Assembly: GCF_022512515.1 (NCBI RefSeq)
Contig: NZ_JAKWBK010000003.1
Coordinates: 62,001 to 126,000, forward strand
DNA length: 64,000 bases
From: Paraniabella hibiscisoli
GTDB taxonomy: Bacteria; Bacteroidota; Bacteroidia; Chitinophagales; Chitinophagaceae
Direction: 5' to 3'
In this document: piece after piece, positions 689 through 49,755 of the stretch
How the letters are laid out: every line of letters starts with the position of its first letter
Numbering within the stretch: position 1 is the stretch's first letter
Notes under the pieces: model-generated
Seen by the model: the letters and a program-made list of their open reading frames with translations, nothing else
Told to the model about the DNA's origin: nothing
Databases searched by the model: none
Position numbers and translations under genes: made by a program

Positions 689-731
689 TATTTAATTTTT
701 AAGTTATCGATATTGCGCCAATTTTCTACTT

Positions 732-12958: not shown

Positions 12959-15572
12959 TTAAACTGTTTTGTTCTCGTGCGTTTCGTTTCTGAATACAAC
13001 TGTGTTGTCAAATACATCTATCAAAACAGGTATATTTCGATCCACATCGCCCGCCAGTATCCGCTTACTTAACTGGTTCACAATTTCTTTTTGTATCAAT
13101 CTTTTTAAAGGACGGGCACCAAACTGCGGGTCAAATCCCTGCTCAGCTAAAAAATCGAGCGCATAATCACTAAAATGCAATTGCAAGCCGCTGTTTTGCA
13201 GCACCTGCCTTTTTAAACCATCCAGCTGTATCTTAATAATGCCCACAATGTCTTTCTTCATCAAAGGCTGGAACATAATGATCTCATCTACCCGGTTCAG
13301 AAACTCAGGCCTTACTGTTTCCCTCAACAAACTCATCACCTGCACCTTTGCCTTTTCCGTAGCTTCATCCAGGGTTTTCTCTGAAACGTCTTCAAAAGCC
13401 TCTTGTATTAGGTGACTGCCTATATTGCTGGTCATTATAATAATGGTGTTCTTAAAGTTAACCACCCGGCCTTTATTATCTGTCAACCTTCCGTCATCCA
13501 GCACCTGTAACAACACATTCCACACATCAGGATGCGCTTTTTCTATTTCATCGAGCAGCACCACACTATAAGGCTTGCGACGTACCGCCTCCGTAAGCTG
13601 GCCGCCTTCGTCGTACCCTACATAGCCGGGAGGCGCACCCACCAACCGGCTCACGGTATGCTTTTCCTGGTATTCGCTCATATCTATACGGGTCATCATT
13701 CCCTCGTCATCAAACAGGTACTCAGCCAATGCTTTGGCCAGTTCGGTTTTACCCACACCTGTTGTTCCCAGGAAAATAAAAGAACCAATAGGCTTTTTAG
13801 GATCGCTCAACCCAGCCCGGCTACGCCTGATAGCATCCGCTACTGCTGTAATGGCTTCCTCTTGCCCCACTACTCTTTCATGCAGGTGCGTTTCGAGTTG
13901 CAGGAGCTTTTCTTTATCGCTCTGCATCATCTTACTCACTGGTATACCTGTTGATTTGGCTACACTTTCGGCAATATCTTCCGCATCTACCTCTTCTTTT
14001 AATAACCGCTTCTCACTGTCTTCCTGCAATTCCTTTGTAAGCTTGGTAATACGCTCTTCTTCTTCCTTTATTTTACCATAGCGGATTTCAGCAACCTTGC
14101 CATAGTCTCCGTTACGCTCCGCCTGCTCTGCCTCTACTTTTAAACTCTCGATACCCGCTTTCGCGTTCTGGATCTGCTCTACCAGTTCTTTTTCTTCTGA
14201 CCACTTAGCTTTTAAAGTATCCCTTTCTACGGAAAGGTTTGCAATCTCGGTGTTTAACTGTTTGAGCTTCTCCTCATCACTCTCCCGTTTAATAGCTTCC
14301 CGCTCAATCTCCAGCTGGCGGATCTGCCGATCCAATTTATCCAACTCTTCGGGCATAGAGTTCATCTCCAATCTAAGCTTAGCAGCGCTTTCGTCAATCA
14401 GATCAATAGCTTTGTCGGGTAAAAAACGATCGGTAATATACCTGCTGGACAACTCCACAGCTGCTATAATTGCATCATCTTTTATACGTACATGGTGGTG
14501 TGTTTCATATCTGTCTTTCAATCCCCGTAAAATAGATATGGCATCTTCAACCGAAGGCTCGTCCACCATTACTTTTTGAAAACGACGTTCCAAAGCTTTA
14601 TCCTTTTCAAAAACTTCTGATACTCATTTAAGGTGGTAGCTCCTACTGCCCTTAACTCCCCACGGGCCAGGGCCGGCTTCAGGATATTTGCGGCATCCAT
14701 AGCACCATCACCACCTCCGGCGCCCACCAGGGTATGAATTTCATCTATGAACAGAATAATTTCTCCATCGCTTCCGCTCACCTCTTTTACCACACCTTTT
14801 AAACGCTCTTCAAATTCCCCTTTATATTTAGCACCGGCAATCAGTAAGCCCATATCCAGGGCATAAATGATCTTCGTTTTCAGGTTCTCGGGCACATCCC
14901 CGTTCACAATACGGTGCGCAATACCTTCGGCTATGGCTGTTTTACCCACACCAGGCTCACCCACCAGGATAGGGTTATTTTTAGTTCTTCGGCTTAAAAT
15001 ATGAAGTGTCCGACGAATTTCTTCATCCCTTCCAATTACAGGGTCTAGCTTACCTTGCCGGGCCAGTTCGTTTAAGTTCTTGGCATACTTATTCAGCGCA
15101 TTAAACTCCTGCGACTGGGTTTGAGAAGATACTGTAGACCCCTGCCTTAACTCTTTAACAGCCGTAACCAATCCTTTGGCAGTAAGACCTGCATCTTTCA
15201 ATAATTTCCCTGCGGCATCACTACCCTCCACAATTGCCAATAGCAAATGTTCGGGGTAATAAACTCATCATTAAACTGTTTTAAAGCAGCGCCTGCGCGT
15301 AATACCACATTATTCGCATCGCGGCTAATTTGTTGCGCCGGCTCACCAGATGATTTAGGTAACCTGGCTATCAATTCGTTGAGCTTATTATCTAACAGGT
15401 TGATGGTTACATTATTTTTCTTTAAAAGATAATCTACCGGAGAGTCTTCCTGCTCCAGCAATGCTTTTAAAATATGCTCGGTTTCTATATTAGGATTTTG
15501 TGCATTAAATGCAAGTTGCTGAGCTTGTTGAAAAGCCTCAGCTGCTTTTATCGTAAAATTTCCCAGATTCAT
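12959..15572 (-). CDS. clpB: ATP-dependent disaggregase ClpB, two frame breaks
   Basis: The protein has the Clp N-domain, the first AAA+ module (Walker [14 protein letters not shown], Walker [16 protein letters not shown]), the middle coiled coil (about 410-520) and the second AAA+ module ([28 protein letters not shown]). Three readable pieces join into the usual 871 aa if the C4 run near 15256 is C5 ([13 protein letters not shown]) and the T5 run near 14608 is T6 ([15 protein letters not shown]). Both are conserved positions, so the breaks are very likely sequence errors. With DnaK it rescues aggregated proteins after heat stress. Confidence 0.95.
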
Positions 15573-15775: not shown

Positions 15776-16387
15776 TTATTTTTGTAAGGGCTGTATGGAA
15801 ATATCCCGAATATCTCCCAGCTTCATTAGCGTTTCAGCCAGGCGGTACTGAGGAATAGCGATATCCATGATACAGAAAAGCTGTAGCTCTTGCTTTAATA
15901 CTTCACAGTCGAATTGTTTAATGGTGGTCATCACATCATTCATCTGCGTGTAATCAAATTGCAGGTGATGGGGAACTAAAACCGGTTTTCTTATCAACGG
16001 CGTAACCTGCAATGCCATAACCGCGGCAGACTTATAGGCGTTGATCAGGCCCGGCACCCCCAATAAGGTGCCACCAAAGTAACGTACCACCACAATCAGT
16101 ACGTCTGTAACGCCTCGACTATCTATCTGTCCTAAAATGGGTCGCCCGGCAGAACCTGAAGGCTCCCCGTCATCGCTGACCCTGTATTGATTGTTATCAA
16201 GCCCCAGTCGGTAAGCAAAACAATAGTGACTGGCTTTAGGATATTCCTTTTTAACATCCAGCAGCTTCTGCTTACAATCGGCAATGGTTTTAACCGGGTA
16301 AGCAACTGCAATAAAACGACTCCCCTTGTCTTTAAATTCAGCAGTACCGGTTGTATCGATGGTGTTAAAATAATGCGGTACCTGCAT
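15776..16387 (-). CDS. yigZ: YigZ/IMPACT family protein (UPF0029)
   Basis: The 203-aa protein has the family signature in order: KGSRFIAVAYPV, DDGEPSGSAGRPIL, VLIVVVRYFGGTLLG and LINAYKSAA. Family members have an N-terminal S5-like domain and a C-terminal EF-G-V-like domain; the bacterial role is not settled (translation-linked regulation is proposed). The frame is intact. Its start overlaps the end of ribD by 23 bp, so the two are co-transcribed and probably translationally coupled. Confidence 0.9.
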   Translation of the reverse strand: MQVPHYFNTIDTTGTAEFKDKGSRFIAVAYPVKTIADCKQKLLDVKKEYPKASHYCFAYRLGLDNNQYRVSDDGEPSGSAGRPILGQIDSRGVTDVLIVVVRYFGGTLLGVPGLINAYKSAAVMALQVTPLIRKPVLVPHHLQFDYTQMNDVMTTIKQFDCEVLKQELQLFCIMDIAIPQYRLAETLMKLGDIRDISIQPLQK

Positions 16388-17472
16388 GAATAAATGAGTT
16401 GTTTTGGTTTTTGAAATAGACGATTCGGTCGTTTTGTAGTGTTATTTCTTTCAGCTTTACCTGTTCTGAAAGTGAGGGCGCTACCACGCCGTCACTCACA
16501 AAAAGTTCTTTATTGGTGATCACATGGGCTTCATCCCATATACCAGCCTTTATAAATGATTGGTGCAGGAAAGCACCTCCTTCTACTAATACGCTTTGTA
16601 TGTTTAGCAACTGAAGCTGATCCATTGCGTCTGGTATCATATTGTTCTTATTCATCTTTAAATAAATAAGATTACCTGATACAGCGTCTTTGACTGTATT
16701 CAAAACAACGACCACATCTGCCGTATTAAAAAGACGGGCCGTGGAAGGCACTTTTAAATTGGGGTCAAATAATATTTTTTAGGAGCAGGTCCCATCCAGT
16801 TCCGGTTATCCAAAAGCGGATCATCGCTTATAGCGGTATTGGCACCTACCATGATAGCAGCATTCTCACTCCTCCAACGGTGCACCAGTCGATTGGTATA
16901 CTCGTTACTGATCATCAACCTGTCTTTGCCAGCCTCAGAAAGATAGCCATTTGCCGTTTGAGCCCACTTTAAAATGATATAGGGCCGTTTTAGCTGGTGA
17001 AAATTGAAAAAGCTTTATTTAAGGCAATGGCTTCTTTTTCTAAAATACCAACCGTTACTTCTATACCGACGGCCTTGAGCTTATCAATACCCTTCCCATC
17101 TACTTTTTCAAAGCTATCGCGGCAAGCTATGACTACTTTGGGAATTTTATACTGAATAATCAAATCAGCGCAAGGCGGTGTTTTACCAAAATGAGCACAG
17201 GGTTCCAGTGAAACATATAATGTTGAAGCTGAAATTTTACCAGGATGATTTTGCAGGGCTTCTTTTATACAATGCACTTCAGCATGTGGACCTCCGTATT
17301 GTTGGTGATAGCCCTCAGCTATTATTTGCCCATTAAACACCAGCACGGCACCCACCATTGGGTTAGGCGCTACCTTGCCTGCGGCTAATTTTGCCAATTG
17401 CAGACAACGCTGCATATAAACCTCATGTGCCTGCTCGTACATTTCTGCAAATGTAACTGAATTAACAGCCAC
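16365..17472 (-). CDS. ribD: Bifunctional riboflavin deaminase/reductase RibD, two frame breaks
   Basis: The N-terminal deaminase domain shows the zinc site GGPHAEVHCIKEA and SLEPCAHFGKTPPCADLI. The C-terminal reductase (KRPYIILKWAQTANGYLSEA, then SNEYTNRLVHRWRSENAAIM and VLVEGGAFLHQSF) is recovered by reading T6 for T5 near 17010 and A7 for A6 near 16777. Length after repair about 369 aa, as expected. It converts the GTP-derived pyrimidine to 5-amino-6-ribitylaminouracil in riboflavin synthesis. It lies divergent to prmC with only 55 bp between, and upstream of yigZ. Confidence 0.93.
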
Positions 17473-33736: not shown

Positions 33737-35946
33737 TCAGGTATTCTCGGTTATTTTTACTTTGTTCATCACCCAACCTAAAAATCCTTTTTCGGAAGAC
33801 AAATATTTTAGGAAATTCATGTCGCTTGCTGCAATTTTATTTCCTGCACCAAAAACCGCAATGGATTTATCGGTAAACATCATCCACTCCTTCACGTTAT
33901 GCATTTCCTGAGAACTATCGATGTCCATGATAACGATATCAAAAGTTTCTTTTAAAACTTTAAACCCGGCAAAAAGGCTTTTAACATCCTTAAGCTCTAA
34001 CAGAGAATTACTATTAGCCTGGTTTCTGTTCAAAATCGTAATTCTGTCTTCAATTTGAATTTCCTTTTTAACCAGGAATGATTCAAATACCTGGTTTTGC
34101 TTTTGTTCCTTTTGTTTTGAATTGTTGGTAACGAGGCTGGTTAAGCCCTGGTGATTTTCGCAAATCAATAATACATTTTTACCCATCATTGCAAAAGCGT
34201 AACTTAAACTACCTGCCAGGAAACTTTTGCCCTCTCCGTCAGCAAAACTGGTTATACCCAAAACATTATTACCATTAGACAACTCTTCATTCAGTTCAAA
34301 TCTAAGAGAACGAAGCAGGTCCCGGTAAATCATATAATCATTAACCGATTCGGTATTCTTCCAGATATCGCGGAGGTCTTTATTTTCCTCATTAATAAGA
34401 TTCAGGCAGCCCAGTACTTTCTGTCCTGTGGCCGACTTCAATTGATCGGGTGTATTGATAGTTGTATTCAACATGAATACAATCAACAACGTAAGCAGGC
34501 AGATCATAAAACTAGATACACCTGATAAACCAAGATATAGAACGCCTTTTGATGGATTAGGCGGTTGCGGCAAACCCGGCTCGCTAATATTCAATTGAAT
34601 TCCCGCTCTGGCAAGCATGCTTGTTTGTTCAAACTGTGTCTGCACATCTGAATATTCCTTTGTCGCCAGATCGGCATCTCTGGCTAAAGCTGCCTGCCCG
34701 GCATTATTCACCAGGCCTACGCTTCCTCCTGCTCTTCTGGGACCTAAGCTGGCCAATTGTTGTTCGACCACAGTTAACATGCTGTTAGCTGCCGCCAGGT
34801 CATTTTCCAACCTGATTTTATCATTAAGCAGGCTTTGCCTGATTCCCGCAGCAGCCGACGAGCTGCCTTTGTCTCCGGAACTGGATAACAAACGTGATTT
34901 GATACGCTGCAGTGAATCTAATGTTGCTTTGTCCTGGGGCTGGAAATTGTTGTTGACATACCTGGCGTTGGCCATAGATATCTGGTTGTCGATGCTGACA
35001 ATATCACTATTACTGGCGGAACTGGTGGAGCCGGAACTCACATAGCCGCCACTTCCGGCCAGTTTATTGTTGACCTCGTTTAATGCTCCTTTTAGCGAAC
35101 TAATATTCCGTACAACAGCCGTACGTTGGCTTTCAGCTTCATTGATCTGCTGATTGATCACATCTGCCTGTTGTTGGGCACTCATGGCATTGGCAGCATT
35201 GGATGCAGCACCAGCGCTAGAGTTCAACAATTGGGCGTTTTTTTTAACCATCTCATTTTGCTTCGCTTTTAAGATTGTATCTAATGAAGCAATGGATTGT
35301 TGCTGATTGGTGGTTACAATATTGGTGTAATAGTTTATAAAATCGCCCGACAATGTGTTAACAACATAAGTAGACAGCTGCGGATTTTCTGAAGTGAACA
35401 CAACTTTAATAAAATCGCTCTCCCCATTACGATAAATTTCCAGGCCTTTCGACAGGCTGCCATCGTCATAACGGAAAGACCGTAAAATATCAAATAACTT
35501 TATCTCGCCGTTATCAGCTATAGAAATAAGTGCATTTGCATTCAAACGCTTCTGATATTCTGCGATCACCTGGGTCTTCTCCTGCGCGGTTAGCTTTTGA
35601 ACATCCTCCGGGTATTTTCTGAACGCCTCCCCAGGATTTTCCAGATCGTGTAAAGCTAATTTGTAGGAAAGCGCTGTAATTCTTTTTTCGACCTCATCAG
35701 TTCCAACAAATTGCCGAACTGTTGGGTTAACTTGAAGTAATCGGTATTTTGCTCCACCTTTAAAGCGGCATCTTGTAAACTGCTGGTTAAACCGGTGGAG
35801 ATCAGTGCCTCCGAGCGATATTCCCGGGGCATTTGCTTAACAAAAAAATAGGTAATTATAACGCACACAAGAGGCACTATAATAAGAAGCCATTTAAACC
35901 TGACTAAGTACTTTAAGAATTCCTTCAGATTAAAATTAAAATTCAT
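33737..35946 (-). CDS. Wzc-like polysaccharide co-polymerase with BY-kinase-type ATPase domain, frameshifted
   Basis: The N-terminal Wzz domain starts with a membrane helix (WLLIIVPLVCVIITYFFV), then a long coiled coil, a Ser/Ala/Gln-rich periplasmic region, the GNVR-like block and the proline-rich TM2 entry (GLPQPPNPSKGVLYLGL). The cytoplasmic domain has a P-loop FADGEGKSFLAGSL and Walker B-like FDIVIMDID. The Walker A' motif, normally LLIDxDxR, reads LLICENHQG, and no C-terminal tyrosine cluster is present, so autokinase activity is doubtful. One extra A near 35688 (A6) repairs the frame. About 736 aa. It controls chain length with the polymerase and TolC-like protein. Confidence 0.85.
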
Positions 35947-35957
35947 TCCTTATGTTA

Positions 35958-36659
35958 TTATCTTACATTTTCAAGCCTTGTGCCAATAATTTCTTCCAGC
36001 TCGTTCTTTGCTTTTAAATAATCAACCTCGGCTGATAAATTGGAAGCTTCTGCTTCAACAAGCAAATTTTTAGTAGAGGTGTAGACTTCTATGGAGACCT
36101 CATTATTTTTAAACTGGGTTTGCGCATTAGTAAAGACGCCTCTCAGGTCTGAAGCTGCAAGCGCTCTTAGCTCAAGCATCTTTCTTGCAGCTAAAAATGC
36201 GTAATACCTGCCCTTTACATTATTTACCAGTACATTTTTGAAATCTTTGTTTTGCTCCTGCGCAATAATATAGTCGGCCTTTGCGCTTTTGATCATTGCT
36301 GGTTTAGTAAGAAAGTTGCCCAGATTCATGCTAATACCAAACTGAAACCCACGGGTAACAATATTACTGGACCCGTTTGAACCACCGCCAGGTATTATTA
36401 CCAGGGCATCATTTTTTGTAGGACTGTAAAAATAGCCGGCGTTAAACATATCTAAAAGACCTACCGCAGCGATTGTCTTCTGAATCCTCGCTTTATCAAG
36501 TGTAGCGTCAGCAGCTTTCTTTAAGGGATAATTCTGAACTGCCAGATTGATATATTTATTAAGCAATACACTATCGATGTCACTTATAATAGACTGTTGA
36601 GCATTTACTCCTAAAATAGAAGTTATGATAAATAAGATTATGAGACATGTTTTTTTCAT
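35958..36659 (-). CDS. Half-size TolC-family outer-membrane protein
   Basis: The start at 36659 (MKKTCLIILFIITSILGVNAQ) gives a clear signal peptide. The rest matches an OEP repeat: LNKYINLAVQNYPLKKAADA, GFQFGISMNLGNFLTKPAMI, then a long helix (DFKNVLVNNVKGRYYAFLAARKMLELRA..) and VEAEASNLSAEVDYLKAKNELEEIIG. At 233 aa it contains only one of the two repeats of a canonical TolC (about 450 aa). It sits 12 bp downstream of the pseudo-receiver sugar transferase and 12 bp before the Wzc-like gene, so it probably helps export the polymer. No frame break seen, so short length seems genuine. Confidence 0.75.
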   Translation of the reverse strand: MKKTCLIILFIITSILGVNAQQSIISDIDSVLLNKYINLAVQNYPLKKAADATLDKARIQKTIAAVGLLDMFNAGYFYSPTKNDALVIIPGGGSNGSSNIVTRGFQFGISMNLGNFLTKPAMIKSAKADYIIAQEQNKDFKNVLVNNVKGRYYAFLAARKMLELRALAASDLRGVFTNAQTQFKNNEVSIEVYTSTKNLLVEAEASNLSAEVDYLKAKNELEEIIGTRLENVR

Positions 36660-36673
36660 ATAGAAAATCAATT

Positions 36674-37798
36674 TTAAACTTTTTCTTTTTGTAGCATAGC
36701 AGGTATCGTCCTTAACATAATTTTCAGATCCATTAAAAAAGAGCTGTCTTTGGCATATGTATTATCCAGTTCTTTACGCTCATCTTCCGACATTTCCGCC
36801 TGTCCCCTTTTAGATATCTGCCACAGGCCGGTTATCCCTGCAGGACCAAGAAATCTCATTGCAAACTGATCTGAAGTAAGTTGCTCCGCCTCGTACAGAG
36901 GTAAAGGCCTGTTCCCGACAATCGACATATCTCCCTTTAAAACATTGAAAAGCTGGGGCAATTCATCGATACTCGTTTTCCTTAAAACATTCCCTATTTT
37001 CGTAATTCGTGGATCATTAAGTATTTTGACGAAGGCTTTTTGCTCATTGCCGCTTTGTTCTCCCGCACTATATTGATTATTGGTTTTACTTAATGCTTCG
37101 AGTTTTTTGTCGGCATCCGTAACCATAGAACGAAACTTGTAAAAGTCAAATATTTTGTACCCCGTTCCAGCTCTCTTACTTTTATATACCACCGGCCCTT
37201 TGCTTTCCAGTCTTATTAAAATAATGACCAGAATAAATAGTGGGAATAATAATAAGATCAAAAAAGACGACACCGCAATATCAAACATCCGTTTATAAAC
37301 GGGCATTTTATACTCTATGCCTTTGGTAGAAAATTTGGAAGCATCATCAGGCTTAATGAGCTTGAACTTTATTAAGAAATTAATACGCTCAAGAATCAAC
37401 TCACTGTTAAATGGACTAAAATAAATATCATTAGCTTTTGCTTCTAACGCCCGTTGATGTAATTCAGTTTTATTAACAGAAGTGAGTAAAATAATGATAA
37501 TACCCGCAGTAATTGCGTTTTGACGCAACGCGCTTATCTCATTGAAAATGCTGCTTTCATTTTTCACTTCCATCAATAACGCGTAGGGTACATCAGCAAT
37601 AGAAGACCCAGACAGATGATTTCTGAAACTTGCTAAAGTAGGATATGTATCAATCCTGTATCCTGAAATAAATTTCTCATCTATTACCTCATCAAAAAAA
37701 TCACTTCCTATATACGCTATACCAACGGTCTGACTTAGAAAATTAGTTTTCAGATGCAAAGAGTTTTGTGTGTTCAGCAAGTAGGTATTTGACGGCAT
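36674..37798 (-). CDS. Initiating sugar transferase with N-terminal pseudo-receiver domain
   Basis: Residues about 24-150 have a receiver-like pattern (VGIAYIGSDFF, PYALLMEVKN, IIILLTSVNKTE, NDIYFSPFNSEL), but the phosphoacceptor Asp is replaced (LMEVKN for LxDxxMP) and the switch Lys is Ser (YFSPFN for KPF). From about 170 comes the polyprenyl-phosphate sugar phosphotransferase: a membrane helix, KRAGTGYKIFDFYKFRSMV, NDPRITKIGNVLRKTSIDEL, PQLFNVLKGDMSIVGNRPLP and GITGLWQISKRG. It starts the lipid-linked repeat. The ATG at 37798 overlaps the response regulator gene by 56 bp; a TTG further in would remove most of this overlap. Confidence 0.88.
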   Translation of the reverse strand: MPSNTYLLNTQNSLHLKTNFLSQTVGIAYIGSDFFDEVIDEKFISGYRIDTYPTLASFRNHLSGSSIADVPYALLMEVKNESSIFNEISALRQNAITAGIIIILLTSVNKTELHQRALEAKANDIYFSPFNSELILERINFLIKFKLIKPDDASKFSTKGIEYKMPVYKRMFDIAVSSFLILLLFPLFILVIILIRLESKGPVVYKSKRAGTGYKIFDFYKFRSMVTDADKKLEALSKTNNQYSAGEQSGNEQKAFVKILNDPRITKIGNVLRKTSIDELPQLFNVLKGDMSIVGNRPLPLYEAEQLTSDQFAMRFLGPAGITGLWQISKRGQAEMSEDERKELDNTYAKDSSFLMDLKIMLRTIPAMLQKEKV

Positions 37799-38141
37799 CT
37801 TTAAGCTTAGTTGGATTAAAAGGTTTTTGAATTATTTCGTTTACCGGAAATCTTAATTGAGCTTCGAGATTTTTGGTATCAGTTGTGCCAGTAAGCAATA
37901 TTACCGGTATTTTGGAGAAAATACCACTGATCTTGATGGAGTTCAAAAACTCGGTACCATTAAAATAGGGCATATTTACATCCAGGATAATCAAATCTGG
38001 CTTGTTCCCCTCCTCCAGCCATCGAATGGCTTCATACCCATTGCTTTTTAATTCGGTTTGGTAGTCTTTTGATAAAACAAACTCTAAAAGTTTTAATATG
38101 GTTGGTTCATCATCAACTATCAGAATTGTTTTCTTCATCAT
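37743..38141 (-). CDS. Single-domain response regulator (CheY-like receiver)
   Basis: The 132-aa protein is a receiver only: acidic pair in ILIVDDEPTIL, phosphoacceptor Asp in LIILDVNMPYFNG, Thr in VILLTGTTDT and Lys in IIQKPFNPTKL. All key residues are present. No output domain. It is the first gene of the exopolysaccharide operon and overlaps the sugar transferase that carries a degenerate receiver, so phospho-signalling to that enzyme is an attractive inference. No histidine kinase is encoded in the window. Confidence 0.92.
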   Translation of the reverse strand: MMKKTILIVDDEPTILKLLEFVLSKDYQTELKSNGYEAIRWLEEGNKPDLIILDVNMPYFNGTEFLNSIKISGIFSKIPVILLTGTTDTKNLEAQLRFPVNEIIQKPFNPTKLKDAVKYLLAEHTKLFASEN

Positions 38142-38283: not shown

Positions 38284-41200
38284 TTAAATTTTGTCTATTA
38301 TCTTTTCTATAGTTTTAATAAGATGTTCGTTGTGTGGAGGAAGAATAAATGTCTTATGATCTCCTCTTACATCATACACGGATACTCCTTTTGTGGCATA
38401 CCTCATCCATCCCAGGTAAGTTCGGTCATCTACAAAATAAGTACGCTCTTTAACCCTGAACAGATGAACTTTAACATCGAGTGGCTTTAAAATATAACTA
38501 TTGTAAGCATTGTTATATGCTTCAATTACCGGCCTCTCGTAATCATAAATTTGTTCGTCTTCTGCCTCTTTAAAATCTTTATTCAGCTTTCTACTCAGCA
38601 CAGATCGTTGATAATTAATAACTTCTCGAGGAGAATGCAACAAATTACCACCAAAAACACTGCTTTTTTAAGCTGGCGGCTCAGGAATCGCATTACCTTA
38701 CCCGGTTTTTCTTCCATATTAGCTCTATCACTTACATTGGTATCCATTATACCTAACATCCTTATTTCTTTGCCCATTGCAATCAACTGTCTAGCCATTT
38801 CAAAAACAACTATACCGCCATAGGAGTAGCCTATTAAAATGTAAGGACCGTCAGGATTTTGCTCCAGCAACTCGTCAAGATACCGCTTTGCAATGCTTTC
38901 GATAGTGCTCAGATGCGTTAAATCGCCATCAAGGCCAAGCGCCTGGATACCGTATAGAGGCTGATCTTCACCCAAAAATGGCTCGAGTGCCTTATAAAGA
39001 AGGATATTTAACGATCCGCCATGAATAAGATAAATAGGAGGTTTGGTCCCTGTTTGTTTAATAGCAACTAAAGATCTGTGCTTGAAATCAGCAGTATTGT
39101 CGAGTAACTTCGCTAGTGAAGATATCGTGGAATATTCAAATAAAGACGCTATGGGAAGCTTAGTATTGGTTTGCTTACCAATACGGTTCATCACTTTTAC
39201 AGCAACCATCGAGTGACCGCCTAACTCGAAAAAGTTATCTTCGATTGATAAGCCGGTCAAACCCAGTTCAGATTCCCAGATATCTTTTATGAGTTGCTCA
39301 TACTCTGTAAGTGGGGTCATATCAGGCCGCTGACGCACGGTTTGTTCAGCCTCCTGCTTTTTGTACATTTCAGGTGGCGCCAGTTTCTTCACGTCTACTT
39401 TCCCGTTCGGGCTAAGTGGAAATTCCTTTACCCTTACCCAAAAAGAAGGAATCATGAAATAAGGAAGATTATTGCGAAGCTGATTTCCCCAGCTGATAAT
39501 TACTTCCTCTTCTTAAACCAGCTATCATCCTTCCCTTCTTCCAAATCAGAAATAATATATGCCACGATATTCTTCTCACCATGTTGATCTTCATGAACAG
39601 TTGTTGCAACGTCTCTTACATGATGCAACCTGGATAAGTGATATTCTATTTCGCCCAGCTCTATTCTAAATCCTCTTATTTTAACCTGGTTATCAACTCG
39701 CCCTTCGTATTTGATCTCCCCGTTTTTCTTTCGCCGCCCCAAGTCGCCACTGCGATACATTCTTGCACCAGCTTTCGCCGAAAAAGGATCGGGTATAAAT
39801 CGTTGTTGTGTCAGCTCTTCCCGTTTCCAATATCCATTAGAAACACCATCGCCTCCGATAAAAATCTCCCCTGTTTCGCCTTCCTCTACCGGTTTCATCT
39901 GGTCATCTAATATATATATAGGCGTATCGGCAATAGCAGCCCCAATTGTGATACGGTTATCACTTAAAATCCTGGTCAACGTACAAATAACGGTGGTTTC
40001 GGTGGGTCCGTATACATTGTAAAGCGCCTTGCACCGGGGAAGCAGTTCCTTTGCGAGGGCCGGTAGCAATACTTCCCCTGCAGACAACAGCGTTACCGGA
40101 ATTTTCCGATCCCAGCTGGCTGCCAACATTAATTTAAACGTGATGGGCGTTGCCAGTATAATGCTAATATTTCTCTTCTCTATTTCATTAAGCAGCAGCT
40201 GTCCATCTTTAATAATTTCATTACTGGTTAATACCAGTTCAGCGCCGTTCACCAAACATAAATAATTATCGAAGCAGGAGGCATCGAATGAAATACTGGA
40301 TACAGACAGAAACCTGGATTGAGCGGTGATGTTGAAGGCATTTTGCATACCTTTTAAAAAATGCGCCAGGTTACGGTGAGTGACCATTGCTCCTTTGGGT
40401 TTACCGGTAGAGCCAGAAGTGTATAGAATGTAGGCGATAGTTTCGGGCCCAAATTCTATATCCGGGCGTTCAAGTGAACATCTTTCCAGCTCTCTTCCTG
40501 CTTCGTCCAGAACTATGGTATTTACCCGTTCATTATCGAAAAGGTTTACATGAGTTAATGAAGTTATTATGAACTGTGCATCGGCATCTTCTATCATAAA
40601 AGCCACGCGGTCTTTCGGATAGTGCGGGTCAACCGGAATGTAAGAGGCGCCGCATTTTAAAACGGCCAGCAAAGAAACAATAATATTGACACCCCGTTCC
40701 AATACTATGGCAACCCGGTCATTTTTATGAATTCCTTTAAACAGAAGATAATTGGCCAACCTGTTAGACTCAAGGTCAAGTTCGGTATAAGTTAATACCT
40801 GATCTCCGAAACGAACGGCTGAAGCGCCGGGATAGGAATTTACCGCTTTTTCAAACAGCTCAATCACCGTCATATTCAGTATACCATCTCCCTGTTGTTC
40901 GAGCAACAGATCAAATACCCCGCGGGCTTCACTGATCTTTAATGCGCTGATTTTAGCTTCCGGCGCTTCAACGATCTGATTTATCAGATAATTAAAAGAG
41001 GCCATAAGCCCTGTTATAGTTGACGACTCGTAAAGCTGTGTATTATAAGACCATTGAAACTCATACCCTTCTTCACAATTGGTGATATTGAGAAATAGCT
41101 CGAAGGTTTCTGCGGCCCTCCTGTTATTGATGATCTTGAAATTGAGGTTATCGAAATGCACCTGGCCATCCATTCCGATGTCTATATTAAATGCCACGGC

Positions 41201-42304
41201 ACCAACGGAATCCGCGACGGATCTCTCTCGATCTTAATTTTTTGCAAGAAGGTTCCGTAGGTAAATTGCTGATGATCGTAATCGTCAAGCATCTTTGCTT
41301 TTCTTTCAGCCAGGTAGTCGGCAAATGACAAATCTTTACCAGGATTACTTCTCAGGGGCAGCAGATTTACACAGTGCCCTATCAGGTCATACATTTCCTT
41401 GGCGGCCTGGCCGGCTGTCGGCAATCCTATAACAACATCAGCGCTTCCGGAATATTTGAAAAGAAGCACTTCAAACACCGAAAGCAGCGTGTTCACAAAA
41501 CTACTTCCGTAACGGGCTCCTACTTTTTTATTTTTTCTGCTATTTCAGCTGGTAACACAAAATCCTCTCTGTGGGCCTTGTAAGTTCTCCTGGCCGGTCG
41601 GGGAAAATCGGGAGGTATTTCAAAAACAGGCACATCCCCTTCGTATTGCTTCCTCCAGTAATTAAGCGCTTCATTATACTCATTCGATTCTTCATATTGA
41701 ACCGAGCGTAAAACATAATCCGTAAATAATAATGGCTTCATTTCTGGCACCAATCCGGAGCATCCCGCATTATAAAGCCTGGCCAAATCTTCCAGAAGAA
41801 TTCCTAAAGACCATCCGTCGCAAATAATGTGGTGGGTAGTAATGGTAAGGCGCCATTCCTCCTGGTTCAAACGAAAAAGTGCCACTCTTGTTAATGGCCC
41901 GTTGAACAGGTCAAAGGGTGATCGCGCATTCTGGTAATGGTATTTTTCCAATACATCCTGCTGGGCGGTCTTGTCTAAGGCTTCCAGATCCTGATAATCG
42001 AGGTGTGGAGATTTAGATTCATAAATGATCATCTGAGCACCATCTTCTGTAAAAGTTGACCTCAAAGATTCATGACGCTGATGTACATCAACGATAGCTT
42101 TTCTGAGTGCATCTTCATTCAACCTGCCAGAAAATTGTAACGACAACGACAGATTGTATGCTAAATTCGCATCTTCTCCACCAAGAATACAGGATGTAAA
42201 AATTTCCTTCTGAGACTCTATCGCAGGAACAATTTTTTCAATAAGGTCTCCGGCAAAAGGGTCAAAGTCTATTACGGTGTTGTTTCTTTTTCTACGGTCA
42301 TCAT
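38284..42304 (-). CDS. NRPS megasynthase: C-A-PCP-TE, five frame breaks
   Basis: The start at 42304 (MMTVEKRNNTVIDFDPFAGD) directly abuts the stop of the upstream gene. The condensation domain has HHIICDGWS (active HHxxxDG). The adenylation domain has YILYTSGSTGKPKGAMV and FDASCFDNYLCLV; my reading of its pocket is D-A-F-L-L-A-V-V-I-K, suggesting a hydrophobic residue, low confidence. The PCP motif is FFELGGHSMVAVK. The thioesterase has GYSYGGIVVFEM, Asp in GIMDTNVS and His in RGDHKTFILPP. Breaks at about 42285, 41527, 41204, 39514 and 38665 are each one base short. About 1,341 aa. It accepts the chain from the upstream synthase, adds one amino acid and releases the product. Confidence 0.88.
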
Positions 42305-45300
42305 TTATTTATCGTTCAATGAGATTTGCAAATATTTACCTGGACTATTCTCGTCGGGCGCAAACCAGGCGGGATTACCGTTTCTATCCTTTCCCAGCCG
42401 CGCACCAGGTACAGGAGGCATTGAATTGTCGACAATTTTCACGGCAGCTTCATGCTGCACTGTCTGAGCCTCTCCCTGTGGAATGAAGCCAGCTTCGCAA
42501 AGCTCAGCGATACTTTCTTCAAAAGCGATACAAATAGCATCGATATCTTCCGGTGTGTGTGCAATGGTCATATAGCAGGGAAACAGGTCCCAGATATGAA
42601 TATTGCGTAACCGCATTAATGCAAACAGTAATTCATAATAAGGATATTCGTCTTTAAACTTAATTTTCCATAACGAAGAAAAGTTGACGATATAAATGGG
42701 CACCCGGTACTTTTCAATAATCTGGCCCAGCCTTTTTACTAACCGCTCTGTCTTTTCATTCATGTCTTTTTGCAAACCGGGTCCCTGAGCCTTTAAAAAA
42801 GTTAGTGCAGCCTTAGTAGTTGCCAGCGCAAGCGGATGACGTACAAAAGTTCCGGCAAAATAAGTAACACCTACTTCGGGCATCGAATCATCGCCATACT
42901 CCCAATAACCACCATCCAATGCATCCATATACTTTTTGCTACCTGCAATAATACCAATGGATATGCCGGCACCTGCTACTTTACCATAGGTTGCCAGATC
43001 TGCTTTAATACCAAACAGCGCCTGAGCTCCACCCAAATGGCATCTGAACCCGGTTATCACTTCATCAAAAACAAGTGCAACATCGAGCGAAGCTGTTAGT
43101 TTCCGCAATTCTTTTAAAAAGGCTATCGGTACAAATTCAGCCCTCCTGCTTTGAACAGGTTCCACTAAAACTGCTGCAATTTCAGAAGCTCTTTCTTTAA
43201 TAATCTGTAGAGATTCTTCAGTACCATACTCCAGTATGAGCATGTTCTGAACATTGTCCGCCAATATACCCGAAGCAGCAGGATATGTTTTAAGCTTCTT
43301 GCTGCCACGCACCAAAACCTCGTCGGTAATACCATGGTAAGATCCGGCAAACGCTACAATAATATCTTTCCCGCTAACCGTACGGGTAATCCTCATAGCT
43401 CCGAGCACCGCTTCTGAGCCTGTGTTACATAATCCTGTACGTTCCATACCCGTTAGTTCACACACAAGTTCTGCAACCTCTCCGGCCAGCACATGCTGAG
43501 GTCCGGTTTCATATCCATCTTCCACCTGTTGCAGTAATGCACTCTTCACAAAGTCGGGTTGATAACCCAGGAAATTAGAACCAAAACCGTTTAATGCATC
43601 CACATACTTATTGCCATCAATATCCCATAGATAACATCCTTTCGATTTATTAGTAACGATGGAGTAAACCATTTCTTTGGTATAAGGTCTGAATCCGGAA
43701 ACCACCCTGGGGTCCGCCATCTTTGCCCTATGTTGCTGCGTATATTCTTTACTCTTTGCCGTCTTCTTATTATAGGCTGCAATGAAGTTGGTAATATACT
43801 TTTGCTGATCTGCTGAAATTTCAGTTACTTTTTCTCAATACGCGCTGTAGCTCCAAAGGGCTTCTTTAACTCCACTTTTTCTTCTGCAGTTAATTCTTCT
43901 GTTTCCTCTGTGGTTACCGCAGCTGTAGTATGATTTCCATTCACATTGCCATTGCTGGTATTTCGCACCATTGCCTGACTATAATTGCTGGCTGCTGCCA
44001 CATTGCCACCGGCAACGCCCTGTTGCATCATAGCTACCTGCTGTGTAAGCAATTGTAATTGCAGCGACATTATGCTAAGCATATCACCTCCTGCCTGTGG
44101 CAAATTATTCGTATAAGCGGGTAAAGAACTTACAGGATTTACAACAGTAGCAACAGGTACCGGCTGAGTTACGGGATTGCTGAACGCTGATGCCGGCAGA
44201 TTGGCATCATAAAATGCGGCCAGTTTATTCAGGCTATCATAATTCTCGCTCAGCTGCCTGAAGGTAACTGGTAAAGAAAACTCCTTCTTCAGGCTGCTTG
44301 TTAGCTGCGTAAGCAAAAGTGAATCCAGTCCCAGCTCAGTAAAATTACTGTTAGGATTGGCTTCTGCCACAGACAAGCCTGACGCCGACTCTATTACTTC
44401 TTTTAGTTTATCCAGTAAAATATCTTTTCTGCTCATTGTTGTTGTAGATGTATTGCTCATTGTTTCATGGGTATTAGGTTGTACAGCAAATACCGGTTGC
44501 GTTACGACTAACTGTTCGGGAGGATCTATCCAAAAACGCTTTTTGTTATAGGCATAAGTTGGTAAATTCTGCGCGATGTTATAACCCCTGTTATTATAAA
44601 TCTTTTTCCAGTTTATTTCTACTCCACGTTGCCATAGTTTTCCCAGCACGCCTCTTGCTGCAATGGCCTCTCCCGTAAGGAGTGTAGCTGTGCTGAGCGA
44701 AGAGAAAGCGTTCGATCCAAGGCCATTTTGGCTGACAAAAATAGTAGCCGAGGTTCCCGGCCCGGCTTCGAGGAATATTGGATTTAAGTCTTGTTGAATA
44801 TTTTTTAATGCCTGGCCAAAACGCACTGTTTCTCTTGCATGATCGGACCAGTAGGCGGCGCTGGTGGCCTCACCGTCTTTGAGCCAGCCTGCAGTTACTG
44901 TAGACATTATGGGTATTTGAGGAACATGCATGGTGGTGCTCTCCACCACGGCTTTTAATAATGGAACCATGGGATCCATCATTGCCGAATGAAAAGCGTG
45001 ACTGGTTCTTAATAGCTTATTAACGATTCCCTGGGCAGTCAGTTTTTCCGCAAAAGCATGGATTACTCCTGTTTCTCCGGAAACCACACATAATTCTGTA
45101 GCATTTTGCGCCGCTATAAAAACGCCTGTTTCTAACAGCGCTTTCACTCTTTCTTCGGAAGCTCTTACAGACAGCATACTACCGGCGGGTAATTCGCTCA
45201 TCAATCTGCCACGTTCTGCAACAATATGCAATGCATCTTTTAGCGAAAAAACACCCGAAAGATGCGCGCCAACAAACTCACCTATGCTATGTCCTGCAAA

Positions 45301-48300
45301 GGCAGCCGGGTTTATTCCCCAGCTCATATACAATTTTGCCAATGCATAAGAAGTGGTAAATATAGCGGGCTGCGCGTAACGCGTATCCTTTAACTTCTCA
45401 GCAGTCACTTCGTCCGCATTATCCACGAAAATAATATCGCGAATATCTTCATTCATTATGGTTTCCAGTATATCAGCACATTCATCTACGGCGTTCCTGT
45501 AAACCTCTTCACAATCATATAAGTCCCGTCCCATATTGGGATACTGGTTTCCCTGACCGGGAAACAAAAAAACAATGCTATTATTTTTCTCTTTTACGCT
45601 ATGACTTGCTGAAACGATAAGCTCCGGCTGCGCCAGCTGAGCTATCAAATCTTCTTTAGTTTTAGCTACAACAAAATTGCGCAATGGCAGATCCTGCCTG
45701 GTAGTATTAATGGTATACGCTATGTCACCTAAATCAGTTTCAATATCGGTCAATAAAAAATCATGCAGCTTTTTAGCATAGCCGGTGATACTTTCCGCAC
45801 GGTGCGCCGACCAACAGATTAACTGAGGTTCTACATCGACCGTTTTTTTGACCCTGCTTCTTTACCACCATATTCCTCCAGCACCACATGTGCATTGGTA
45901 CCACCTACTCCTAAAGAGCTAACACCTGCAATACGCTTCCCTTCTGTTTCCCATGCTCTGAATGTATGATTCACTACAAAAGGGCTGTTTTGAAAATCGA
46001 TATGGGGATTAGGCTTGGTAAAATTGATAGAAGGCGCCAATTGCTTATGATGCAATGACAAAACCGTTTTCATAAAGCCCGCTACACCGGCCGCATGTGT
46101 CAAATGCCCGAAATTACTCTTAACCGATCCAATAGAGCAGAATTGCTTTTTCTCCTGCTTACCAAAAGCAAGCTTCAAGCCATCTATCTCAATCGGATCA
46201 CCCAAAGGCGTTGCGGTGCCATGAGCCTCAACATAAGATATATCAGCGGGGTTCACTTTTGCATCATCAAGGGCCATCAATATAGCTGCAGCCTGTCCTT
46301 CGGCACTAGGCGCTGTAAAGCTTCCCTTATTACCTCCATCGTTATTAATACCTACCCCTTTCACAACAGCATAGATGGTATCGCCATCTTCTTCGGCATC
46401 TTTCAATCGTTTTAATAACACCGCACCAACTCCATCACTAAACACAGTACCCCTGGCATCAGCATCAAAAGGCCTGCAATGGCCATCTGCACTCAACATT
46501 GAACCTTCTTCGTACAAATGCCCGCTATTTACCGGTACCGTTATCGCAACACCGCCTGCTATTGCCGCATCAGATTGCCCGGCTCTCAGGCTTTTTCTAC
46601 CGCTTGCGCAATGGCGACAAGCGAAGTAGAGCATGCTGTATTTACATTTACCGAGGGACCCGACAAATTAAGCTGATAGCTTACCCGGCTGCTTATATAA
46701 TCTTTATCAGAAACAGACAGAACAGGGATACTATGTATGTCTATTTTATTCTTATACCCTACTACATTATTGTTGAAATAGGAGTTTGGCCCACAGCCGG
46801 TAAATACACCTATTACCGTTGATTTTTTATCAGAAAGGTACCCGGTTTTTTCGAGCAGATTTCTTGACGTTTCCAGAAATAGCCGATGCTGCGGATCCAT
46901 TATTTCTGCTAAACGCGGACTGATGCCAAAAAACTCAGCATCGAAAAGCTCTACTCCTTCTAAAACACCTCTTGCCTTTACATAAGAGGGATCATTCTTC
47001 ACACTATCCGGCAACGTCTTATCTAATTCATCGGTGGAGAAAAAACTTGTGGTTTCTTTGCCGTTCTTTAGTAACTCCCAGAAACCTTCTACCGTGTTAA
47101 CTCCAGGAAAATTACATTCCATTCCAATTACAGCAATTGCTGTATCAGAAACCTGTTGCGTTTCTTTTTTCCGGGCCTGCGTAACGACTTTTCTTCCCCT
47201 TTTAAAAACTTAAGAAATGCTTCGATGGTTGGATGCTGATATAATTTAGTAATGGGTACCTTTATATCAAGATCCGCTTTAAGAATATTGACAACTTTTT
47301 GAGCCAGCAAAGAATTTCCACCTAATTCAAAAAATTATCATCGGGTTCGACTCCCTTCACCCCTAGCTCAGTTTCCCAAATAGCCTTCAACCTTCCGGTA
47401 AGCACCGCCTCTTCCCGGGACGACTCTACTACAGTTTTTAATTCATTCTCAGGCTCTTTATATTTCAGTGCCTTCCTATCCACTTTTTTGTTGGGTGTTA
47501 GCGGAAAAGTTTCCAGTTTTACCCATCCATTAGGAATCATATAAGCCGGAAGATCTTTACTCAATTCTTTCCGCCAGCTAACCACCTCCTTTTTTGTTGC
47601 GGCTCCGCCGTTAAGAGTAGCCAGGTCTGAAGGAATTAGATAAGCAATAAGCTTGGGTTCTAAACTATCTGCTCCTTCTACTTTAACAACGGCATCTTTT
47701 ATTCCACTTATTTTAGAAATATAGTGTTCAATTTCTTCAAGTTCTATCCGGTATCCTCTTATTTTAGCCTGGTTATCACTTCTTCCCAGGCAAAGAAACT
47801 CTCCACTCTCCAGCACTTTACCAAGATCCCCGGTTTTATAAATACGCGCGCCTTCCACACCTGAAAACGGATCTGCGATAAATCGCTCTGCCGTGAGCTC
47901 GGGTCGTTTGTAGTAGCCCAGTGCGACACCATCTCCGCCTATAAATATCTCGCCCTCTGTACCTGCTGGTAATAACGCATGGTTTTCATCAAGAATATAA
48001 ACACTGGTATTCCTGATAGGTGCTCCGATGGAGATAAAACCATCTTCTTTTGTTATCTCTTTTACTGTAGACCAAATAGTTGTTTCTGTAGGGCCGTACA
48101 TATTGAACAGCCGGCCACATTTCTGCAGCAACGCATCTGCTATATTTTTTGACAAGGCCTCTCCGCCGCATAATAATGTTAATGATTCCAAAGAAGGCCA
48201 TTTTTCCTGTAACAGAAGCTTATAAGTAGCCGGTGTAGCCTGAAAAATATTGATGCCTTGTACTTGTAAAATATCTATTAGCGCCTTGCTGTCCTTGGTT

Positions 48301-48998
48301 ATTTCTTTATCGGCAAGTACTAATTGCCCACCGGAAATAAGCGGCAAAAATATTTCCAGACCTGCAATATCAAAAGACACAGTAGTAACGGCAAGCAACC
48401 TGGTATGAGTATCTGTATTGAAGATATCTTTCATACCCAACAGAAAATTCAGCAGGTTTTTATGTGAGACCATTACCCCCTTGGGTTTACCTGTTGAACC
48501 TGATGTATACAGCAAATAAGCCAGATCATTTCCGGATACTTTAATACCCGGATCAGCAACATCACCATCCGTTAATGCTGCTTCCAACTCTTCGATAATA
48601 AGATGTTTTGATTGCGGTGTATGAATACTGCCCGAAAGCCCATTATGTATTAAAACAAAAGCCGCTTCTGAATCGTCTAACATCAGTTTTATGCGATCTT
48701 CCGGAAACTCGGGATCAATAGGTAAATAAGCTGCGCCACACTTTAATATGGCCAGTAATGCCGTTATTACCTGGGGGCTGCGGTCCAGCACAACACCTAT
48801 AATATCGCCTTTTTGAACACCGCTTTTAAGTAAATAGTTGGCATATTTGTTGATAGAATTATTTAATGCTTTAAAAGAGTAGGAATTTGAGCCAAATTTT
48901 AAAGCTATACCATCAGCATTTTGATGAGCCGCCAATTCAAAAAAATCCACAACGCTTCCGGAAGGAAGCGGCTTGTACATCTGATTCTGCATTTTCAT
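42305..48998 (-). CDS. Hybrid NRPS-PKS: A-PCP-KS-AT-ACP-aminotransferase, five frame breaks
   Basis: Start at 48998 (MKMQNQMYKPLPS). Domains in order: adenylation (LLYTSGSTGKPKGVMV; pocket read as D-I-L-Q-L-G-M-I-W-K, like known glycine codes); PCP (FFELGGNSLLAQ); ketosynthase (Cys in NTACSTSLVAI near 46631, His in VEAHGTATPLGDP and NFGHLTHAAG); acyltransferase (GHSIGEFVGAH, malonyl-type SHAFHS); ACP (ELGLDSLLL); a flexible linker; class III PLP aminotransferase (AGSYHG, FDEVITGFR, Lys in ATYGKVAGAG). No KR, DH or ER. Breaks at about 47337, 47165, 46594, 45843 and 43833 are each one base short; repaired length about 2,233 aa. It should load an amino acid, add malonate and transaminate the beta-keto group. 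Confidence 0.9.
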
Positions 48999-49755
48999 TT
49001 TTTTTCTTTCAGCATATAACGATATCGGCTGCAGGCTTAGCATTCGGTTTGACAGGTAGCAATACCCCTTTATCCAACATTGGACTGCAGCTGCGGTTTC
49101 GTCAGATTCATATATTTACGTAATTCGACACGAAGCGATATTTTAGTTTTAAGAGTAATTGCAATTGATCATCTTTTATCACACAAAACCTAATCACTGC
49201 CCGAAACTTCCAATGCACCCCATCATGCTGATATATCAAACGATCATTATTCGTACAGAAGGAGAATTATTCATTAACAATGACAAGGTTTCCAGAGATA
49301 AATTCATTTCTGTATGCTCGAAATTCAGTGTTTATCAGCCTTTTTCCTACTGTGTGTATTAGTTTAAATAGAAGGCATCTCTTTTAAAATAAAACGTCTT
49401 TATGTCTCAAAGATATAAATTTATTACCTCATTTAGGTCGCCAATAGAGGTGAATACATAATTTTTGCCGAAACGAAGACAATTTTAATAGACTTTGAAC
49501 AATACGATTTGCTAGCATCACATAGTGAGCGCGATAATCCAATCAGGATAGATTTTCAGCCAAAACATCATTCACGCCGAATATACAATTAATGAATGGG
49601 CCCGTACATATCCGCGCGCAAATAACTAAAGAATCAATTTCAAGCCTTTTAACTCACAACATATTGATAAACAAATAATTTTCATATTATTATTTTTAAA
49701 CACCCGTGCTTCTCCAGAAATGCAAAACCACAGTATACACTACCGATAAAACAAA
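48999..49755. other. Long intergenic region upstream of the megasynthase operon
   Basis: About 750 bp of AT-rich DNA between the megasynthase start and the glycogen-phosphorylase terminator. No convincing gene on either strand; the short ORF at 49159-49362 has no recognisable features. A TATCTTTG on the minus strand (49408-49415) fits TAnnTTTG but lacks a good -33 partner; if used, the 5' leader would be about 400 nt, room for post-transcriptional control. Confidence 0.45.

What the first reader, a model, noticed from the sequence alone, without database searches (positions are those of the whole stretch)
38284..48998. Compact two-protein NRPS-PKS line with an in-line aminotransferase and no ketoreductase
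Domain order read directly is A-PCP-KS-AT-ACP-AMT followed, with zero bp between stop and start, by C-A-PCP-TE. In mycosubtilin/iturin-type synthases an AMT converts a beta-ketoacyl thioester into a beta-amine on a fatty chain. Here the unit ahead of the PKS module is an amino acid, so amination would give a beta,gamma-diamino acyl unit, a rare building block, then one more amino acid and release. The predicted product is a very small dipeptide-like amine (or a 4-aminopyrrolidinone if the gamma-amine attacks the thioester). No PPTase or exporter gene is adjacent.
Basis: partly seen in the sequence, partly recalled or inferred. Interest (0 to 1): 0.82.

Follow-up and report, generated by a model that had tools for sequence, protein, structure and literature searches.

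The report
Tiny NRPS-PKS line in polysaccharide operon
A two-protein bacterial assembly line probably joins glycine, a two-carbon unit and a second amine group into an unusual diamino building block plus one more amino acid; it sits at the head of a slime-polysaccharide operon in its genus, and its amino-acid choosers are swapped between species.

Summary
On the minus strand (38284-48998) the domains read A-PCP-KS-AT-ACP-AMT, then C-A-PCP-TE, with a stop directly followed by ATG. The in-frame stops are most likely sequencing indels: ten frameshifts, all of one sign, eight at homopolymers (mean 2.2 by random placement). Three same-genus relatives carry both genes intact. There is no room for a ketoreductase. 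The AMT's best solved relative is the mycosubtilin synthase beta-aminotransferase (E 1e-113). The A1 code reads as glycine, so 3,4-diaminobutyryl-X is the best product guess; X is unresolved.
The layout is already in print (a 2013 table, Pedobacter heparinus) and common: the AMT matches in 38 of 395 genomes of the class. I found no characterised product.
Two things were missed. In this genus the synthase heads an exopolysaccharide (EPS) operon: all 8 genomes with that operon's sugar transferase have strong NRPS C domains there; 1 of the 9 others has any. And A domains are swapped, and the AMT present or absent, at this one site. Elsewhere EPS neighbours are a minority (7 of 25 loci), so an EPS function is a hypothesis.

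The parts
42305..49043 (-). gene 1 (frameshifted in this assembly): A-PCP-KS-AT-ACP-AMT plus C-terminal tail
   Evidence: intact relatives
47484..48935 (-). A1 adenylation domain, code DILQLGMIW (glycine-like)
47206..47393 (-). PCP1 (ELGGNSLLA at 47302-47328), crossed by a frameshift at a T run
45852..47140 (-). KS, Cys/His/His motifs present, one frameshift inside
44644..45573 (-). AT with GHSIGE and SHAFHS (malonyl-type)
44212..44409 (-). ACP (LGLDSLLL)
42470..43807 (-). AMT, class III aminotransferase; lysine motif ATYGKVAG at 42971-42994
42305..42469 (-). C-terminal tail GARLGxDxxGNPAWF..PGKYLQ, kept in 3 of 4 AMT-less synthases looked at; docking role is inferred
38284..42304 (-). gene 2 (frameshifted): C-A-PCP-TE; ATG directly after the stop of gene 1
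40922..42266 (-). C domain, HHIICDG
39393..40849 (-). A2 adenylation domain, code DAFLLAVVI (substrate not resolved)
39105..39293 (-). PCP2
38287..39047 (-). TE, GYSYGG and a C-terminal His
37743..38141 (-). stand-alone response regulator receiver, first gene after the line
36674..37798 (-). bacterial sugar transferase PF02397 (EPS initiation)
35958..36671 (-). outer membrane efflux-type protein (OEP, E 5e-20)
33737..35946 (-). Wzz-type chain-length protein with a nucleotide-binding part, two frame pieces

Best explanation
It is a minimal NRPS-PKS line that makes a beta,gamma-diamino acyl (here probably 3,4-diaminobutyryl) amino acid. A1 loads glycine on PCP1. KS and AT add one malonate, giving 4-amino-3-oxobutyryl-ACP. 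The AMT turns the beta-ketone into an amine. The C domain of gene 2 joins the diamino acyl chain to the amino acid of A2. TE releases a free or cyclised dipeptide-sized amine. Carrier proteins are primed by a PPTase encoded elsewhere. In this genus the line is probably expressed with, and may serve, an exopolysaccharide operon. Shown by sequence: domain order, motifs, intact relatives, operon-like arrangement, A-domain exchange. Inferred: every chemical step, the amine donor, the form of release, co-expression, any EPS role.
For: Domain order and motifs. Intact orthologues with the same order. AMT closest in the PDB to MycA AMT 6kfm/6kfr/6kfu, E 1e-113, lysine conserved; MycA AMT is reported to move an amine from Gln to the beta-ketothioester on the ACP (PMC3870968, passages). 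A1 code DILQLGMIW, one letter from the recalled Gly code. No KR space. EPS link: 142 bp gap to the operon; strong NRPS C domains (E below 1e-38) at the EPS site in 8 of 8 genus genomes with the orthologous sugar transferase, and anywhere in 1 of 9 others (Fisher p 4e-4 without correction for kinship); EPS-like genes near 9 of 13 close relatives, 4 of 41 more distant AMT loci and 1 of 26 aminomutase loci (one distant locus, L074, belongs to the close clade in the tree, which makes it 9 of 14 and 4 of 40); Pfam-checked EPS neighbours in L062, L063, L064, L066, L068, L070, L071 and L112; annotated Variovorax paradoxus record with PPTase, polysaccharide export, tyrosine autokinase and sugar transferase downstream.
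Against: No product is known, and the A2 substrate is unresolved. The A code was read by a recalled convention. In a class-wide sample only 7 of 25 AMT loci had EPS genes in the fetched flanks, against 0 of 12 shifted controls (p 0.07), and none of the 7 loci fetched from genus g128 (15 genomes of it match; two of the 7 have a flank cut short by the contig end). AMT-less synthases also sit at the same EPS site, so the added amine cannot be essential to whatever that site does. No gene that would attach the product to a sugar was recognised. The close and distant sets were drawn by list order after a first look. The terminator scan found no more sites than shuffles (10 against 10.3), so its silence in the gap says little.
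Confidence: 0.6

Rival explanations
1. EPS decoration: the TE or a neighbouring enzyme passes the diamino-acyl-amino acid to a sugar of the polysaccharide, giving a cationic, species-variable substituent.
For: Operon position; EPS neighbours in several genera and in a Variovorax plasmid; A specificities vary at a fixed EPS site; the TE of the intact relative L029 has sequence matches to Pks13 and FAS thioesterases (that the Pks13 TE transfers to a sugar is recalled).
Against: No transferase identified; 18 of 25 class-wide loci show no EPS genes; a type I TE normally hydrolyses or cyclises (recalled); the best TE hit is an NRPS TE, not Pks13.
Confidence: 0.2
2. Diffusible small amine (signal, antimetabolite or metal ligand) merely co-regulated with EPS. 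The vicinal diamine could chelate copper or nickel.
For: Many relatives show no EPS genes in the fetched flanks, often with a PPTase beside them. Of four plasmid copies read, three (two Variovorax, one Spirosoma linguale) have copper genes within the fetched stretch.
Against: The fourth plasmid copy has none and is followed by EPS genes instead. With seeds from the plasmid stretches, copper genes turned up beside no other AMT locus tested; the one copper-ATPase hit was in a control. Plasmids often carry metal resistance (recalled). No receptor or exporter of small molecules is among the 22 most recurrent neighbour families shown, apart from the OEP of the EPS operons and one ABC-type protein in 3 genera, recognised by eye.
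Confidence: 0.35
3. Off-pathway cyclisation: the gamma-amine attacks the ACP thioester and 4-aminopyrrolidin-2-one leaves before gene 2 acts.
For: A five-membered ring is chemically easy (inference).
Against: A second gene with C, A and TE is next to gene 1 in 20 of 25 class loci, 1 more is cut by a contig end, 4 show none. The plasmid copy of Spirosoma linguale also lacks it.
Confidence: 0.08
4. Pseudogene: the stops are real and the line is dead in this species.
For: Ten frameshifts; the near relative G003 is fragmented too.
Against: All shifts have one sign and 8 of 10 are at homopolymers, far over random placement; the motifs looked for are kept; genome completeness is only 83% and ClpB nearby is split as well.
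Confidence: 0.05

Closest known systems
Mycosubtilin synthase MycA / iturin-type beta-amination module
   Same: GSA-type (class III) AMT acting in cis on a KR-less beta-keto-ACP; the AMT is the nearest solved relative
   Different: MycA starts from a fatty acid and makes a long lipopeptide (recalled); here an amino-acid A domain is the starter and the product is dipeptide-sized
Uncharacterised Pedobacter heparinus C6XWU5, layout A-CP-KS-AT-CP-PLP1, predicted Nrp-Mal-Gly-Pk (PMC3870968 Table 2, section 7 read)
   Same: identical layout of gene 1; four Pedobacter relatives have both genes
   Different: A1 of the four Pedobacter copies fetched is Pro-like (three) or Asp-like (one), not Gly; EPS is not discussed in the parts of that paper that I read
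Salinisphaera shabanensis F7QBN5, C-A-CP-KS-AT-CP-PLP1-C-HxxPF-A-CP, predicted Gly-Mal-Nrp (same table)
   Same: predicted glycine, malonate, AMT, then C-A
   Different: has an N-terminal C domain; single protein; no product given beyond the prediction
Pseudanabaena galeata C-A-PCP-KS-AT-PCP-AMT line (PMC11356792, section 3.3 read)
   Same: amino acid (Val) extended by malonate, then AMT, then C-A
   Different: has an N-terminal C domain and two further NRPS modules; [quoted passage not shown]
Microcystin McyE / nodularin NdaF (order recalled)
   Same: ACP-AMT followed directly by C-A-PCP
   Different: aryl-polyketide chain and longer peptide

Membership tests
MycA/iturin-type beta-aminating PKS module | class III AMT with PLP lysine, close to MycA AMT | tested here: met
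MycA/iturin-type beta-aminating PKS module | KR-less PKS module directly before the AMT | tested here: met
MycA/iturin-type beta-aminating PKS module | fatty-acyl starter (acyl ligase) | tested here: not met
   A1 has the Asp of amino-acid A domains and a Gly-like code (recalled convention); so it works like MycA's AMT step but is not an iturin synthase
MycA/iturin-type beta-aminating PKS module | amine transfer from Gln to the beta-ketothioester | not testable with these tools
   needs purified protein
A-CP-KS-AT-CP-PLP1 lines (Pedobacter heparinus layout, PMC3870968) | layout A-PCP-KS-AT-ACP-AMT in one protein | tested here: met
A-CP-KS-AT-CP-PLP1 lines (Pedobacter heparinus layout, PMC3870968) | one clade with Pedobacter AMTs | tested here: met
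   (quick tree, SH-aLRT only): 12-row set at 99 that holds the window, four Pedobacter, Spirosoma and Chitinophagaceae rows; P. heparinus itself was not in it
EPS operon gene | co-directional with and close to EPS genes in the genus | tested here: met
   8 of 8 placeable genus copies lie 0.5-2.9 kb before the sugar transferase on the same strand, one gene more between them in G012, G008 and G013 (in G004 two synthase sets in a row); a ninth copy (G016) is on a 4.6 kb contig and cannot be placed
EPS operon gene | function in EPS synthesis | not testable with these tools
   needs a mutant and EPS analysis

The most novel reading that the evidence does not exclude
These lines are a serotype-like device: an NRPS-PKS built into an EPS operon, whose A domains and AMT are exchanged between species at one fixed site, hangs a variable diamino-acyl amino acid on the slime polysaccharide. 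It would be assembly-line chemistry used to diversify a cell-surface polymer.
Probability: 0.17. Interest if true: 0.82.

Novelty: new variant of a known kind. Interest (0 to 1): 0.52.

Why it matters
If the reading is right, a short two-protein line (about 3,500 aa in intact relatives) makes a beta,gamma-diamino acid; the five paper searches that I aimed at such products listed no characterised assembly line for one. A natural set of swapped A domains and AMT-plus or AMT-minus versions at one locus offers a ready test of module exchange rules. The fixed place in an EPS operon links assembly-line chemistry to matrix polysaccharide and can be tested by one deletion.

Tried and rejected
Hidden KR: rejected, 77 residues between AT and ACP. 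Real stop codons: unlikely. Acyl-ligase starter: rejected by the A1 code. The first EPS neighbour scan used seeds taken partly from the loci under test and was circular; it was replaced by seeds from the window's genus only and by neighbour clustering without seeds. Copper link seen on plasmids: tested and not recurrent. Phage collection: searched with the AMT of L029; 57 records match, all below 60% identity and none over 80% coverage. No structure prediction was run. The Stachelhaus code convention, the GrsA numbering, the code-to-substrate readings and the AT motif meaning are recalled. NCBIfam was tried once (failed) and not repeated; PADLOC and PHROGs were not used. Paper searches: five on the product or the AMT, four on EPS, surface polysaccharides or Bacteroidota clusters, one on A-domain recombination (68); only the listed hits were seen. 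One search counted any of three broad terms, so it says little beyond 'aminostatine' being absent from the ten papers listed.
Full report
OBSERVATION. The window lies in G000, contig C3, a 6.1 Mb genome in five contigs with 83% completeness. On the minus strand, frame pieces between 49043 and 38284 match, in order, AMP-binding, ketoacyl synthase, acyl transferase, PP-binding and class III aminotransferase, then Condensation, AMP-binding, PP-binding and Thioesterase. Profiles built from relatives (the A profile also held the window's A1 piece) add PCP1 and confirm A-PCP-KS-AT-ACP-AMT and C-A-PCP-TE. The TAA of gene 1 (42307-42305) is followed at once by ATG (42304). Motif strings read from the translation are placed.

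BROKEN FRAMES. Comparison with relatives shows ten frame changes, every one in the same direction: nine between matched pieces and one at the start of gene 2 (read). Eight of the ten lie at runs of five or more equal bases; stretches of the same lengths placed at random in the same 10.7 kb give 2.2 on average, and 1 of 5000 draws is as high. Nearby ClpB is likewise split into same-strand frames. Of five other genus genomes with the AMT, three (G012, G004, G001) have open frames of 2250+1336, 2204+1335 and 2204+1335 aa; G013 is in pieces on a 15 kb contig and the near relative G003 (72% complete) is fragmented. I take the stops as sequencing errors; only new reads can prove it.

CHEMISTRY. The AMT's best solved relatives are the mycosubtilin synthase AMT structures 6kfm, 6kfr and 6kfu (E 1e-113), ahead of glutamate-1-semialdehyde aminomutases (about 1e-45). 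In an alignment of eight relatives K278 and the DE pair are invariant. MycA's AMT is reported to take an amine from Gln and place it on the ACP-bound beta-ketothioester (PMC3870968, passages). The AT has SHAFHS; PMC11356792 reads HAFH as a specificity mark for its malonyl-type AT (section read). In intact L027 the AT ends at 1475 and the ACP starts at 1553, so there is no KR. The A1 code, read by the recalled nine-position convention, is DILQLGMIW, one letter from the recalled glycine code; A2 is DAFLLAVVI and unresolved. Hence glycine + malonate + amine gives 3,4-diaminobutyryl, then one amino acid, then TE. None of this chemistry is shown by experiment.

FAMILY. Of 395 genomes drawn from the class (unnamed; Bacteroidota by the nearest named relatives), 38 match the AMT at E 1e-90 or better, counting G000 itself; 33 of the 41 listed matches lie in frames of 2115-2272 aa, the size of gene 1. 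I took flanks of 25 of the 41 (24 genomes), choosing gene-1-like matches over as many genera as possible: 20 have a gene with C, A and TE next to the AMT gene, one is cut by a contig end and four show none. A 2013 survey already lists A-CP-KS-AT-CP-PLP1 in Pedobacter heparinus with the guess Nrp-Mal-Gly-Pk, and a Gly-Mal-Nrp guess for a Salinisphaera line with an AMT (PMC3870968 Table 2). No characterised product came up in the five paper searches aimed at it. I read passages or sections of PMC3870968, PMC11356792, PMC13252402 and PMC9248904; all other papers I saw only as search listings.

A-DOMAIN EXCHANGE. At the same site in the genus the predicted pairs differ: window Gly / unresolved; L027 Thr / Asn; L028 Thr / Thr; L029 unresolved type / Asn; a second set in the same genome as L028 (L056) Pro-like, then Asn and the unresolved type (substrate names recalled). 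Among the 17 A domains compared, the window's A1 is closest (69%) to the A of L058's gene 2, and its A2 is closest (71%) to the last A of L057. Against L029, the window's gene 2 pieces show about 69-72% identity over C, 39% over the different A and 53% after it. Sliding identity between L027 and L028 in gene 2 is 32-63% over C, 18-47% over A and 57-75% in the last four windows, over TE; L027 against L029, both Asn, has 55-85% over most of A and 39% in its last window. So the break is deepest over A, though C also varies. A1 reads as glycine in none of the 24 class loci that could be coded and in none of the other first A domains of AMT lines; G003's broken copy was not coded. The AMT itself comes and goes: it is absent in L056 set 2, L057 and L058 and in the G016 copy. 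The tail GARLGxDxxGNPAWF is kept in three of these four; it was not found in an open frame of L057. Recombination as a driver of NRPS diversity is known (PMC8097286, abstract in search listing only).

EPS CONTEXT. After the TE, with a 142 bp gap, follow on the same strand a receiver domain, a PF02397 sugar transferase, an OEP-type protein and a Wzz-type protein. The terminator scan shows no site in the gap, but it finds no more sites than shuffles. Orthologues of the sugar transferase (55% identity or more) are in 8 of 17 genus genomes. NRPS C domains with E below 1e-38 are in the same 8, all within reach of that gene, and in one other genome (G016) on a 4.6 kb contig that cannot be placed; two more genomes have only weak C-domain hits. 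The AMT is in 6 of those 8 and in 0 of the other 9. These counts are not independent of kinship.

With seeds from the genus alone (phmmer E 1e-3), EPS-like genes flank 9 of 13 close relatives, 4 of 41 more distant AMT loci and 1 of 26 aminomutase loci (p 7e-5 and 3e-5). The close set was drawn by list order after a first, circular look; L074, which the tree puts in the close clade, was counted as distant, and moving it gives 9 of 14 and 4 of 40. Pfam confirms EPS-type neighbours in eight named loci: L062, L063, L064, L066, L068, L070, L071 and L112. On a quick AMT tree of 65 rows an EPS label on 18 rows needs 5 changes against 16.1 in shuffles, 0 of 500 as low; one label (L068) rests on the circular scan, one weak hit (L115) was not labelled, and near kin cluster in any case. 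Against this, in the 25 class-wide loci only 7 had EPS hits, against 0 of 12 shifted controls (12 of the 25 loci had a control; p 0.07), and 0 of the 7 loci fetched from genus g128, in which 15 genomes match. Clustering of neighbours over 38 loci under 17 genus labels (code and named genera may overlap) puts a PPTase first (24 loci, 11 labels), then OMP (10 loci), receiver (10), Wzz (9) and a glycosyltransferase family (5), each under 5 labels; the window's genus supplies part of these. An annotated Variovorax paradoxus record shows the two genes, a PPTase, a hydrolase, a hypothetical protein, polysaccharide export, tyrosine autokinase and sugar transferase in one direction.

VERDICT. The layout itself is known and common. 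What is new here is the combination of a Gly-primed line, exchange of A domains and of the AMT at one site, and residence at the head of an EPS operon. Whether the product touches the polysaccharide is open.

Noticed in passing
window 1-1833: Two transposase-like ORF pairs on the minus strand; the integrase core was confirmed by Pfam for 732-1493, the rest read by eye.
   Followed up: partly
window 12959-15572 and 16365-17472: ClpB (Pfam on two pieces) and a RibD-like gene (by eye) split into same-strand frames, in line with an indel-rich assembly.
   Followed up: partly
L056 5030-17520 (G004): A second, AMT-less NRPS-PKS set in tandem with the AMT set: A(Pro-like)-PCP-KS-AT-ACP and C-A(Asn)-PCP-C-A-PCP-TE.
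   Followed up: partly
L033, L034, L097, L106 (also L077): Variants with a sulfotransferase domain between PCP1 and KS; in the first four the line is fused into one protein of about 3400-4165 aa (L033 and L106 cut by the end of the stretch or contig).
   Followed up: no
L062, L063, L066 gene 2; also G226, G463, G431b: Insertion of roughly 370-460 aa between the A2 core and the PCP, where N-methyltransferase domains usually sit (recalled); not identified.
   Followed up: no
C-terminal tail of gene 1, window 42305-42469: Conserved tail GARLGxDxxGNPAWF..PGxYLQ, kept in 3 of 4 AMT-less synthases; possible docking element.
   Followed up: partly
L218 (Spirosoma linguale pSLIN02), L219, L220 (Variovorax plasmids): Plasmid copies of the line have copper-resistance genes within the fetched stretch; the S. 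linguale copy has no C-A-PCP-TE gene in that stretch.
   Followed up: yes
L031 16058-16819 and L064 15554-16300: Sfp-type PPTase directly downstream of the line in relatives, absent at that place in the window.
   Followed up: yes
L030 9195-11387 (G013): A 730 aa protein with weak hydrolase Pfam hits (BD-FAE, Chlorophyllase) between the synthase and the sugar transferase, overlapping the end of gene 2.
   Followed up: no
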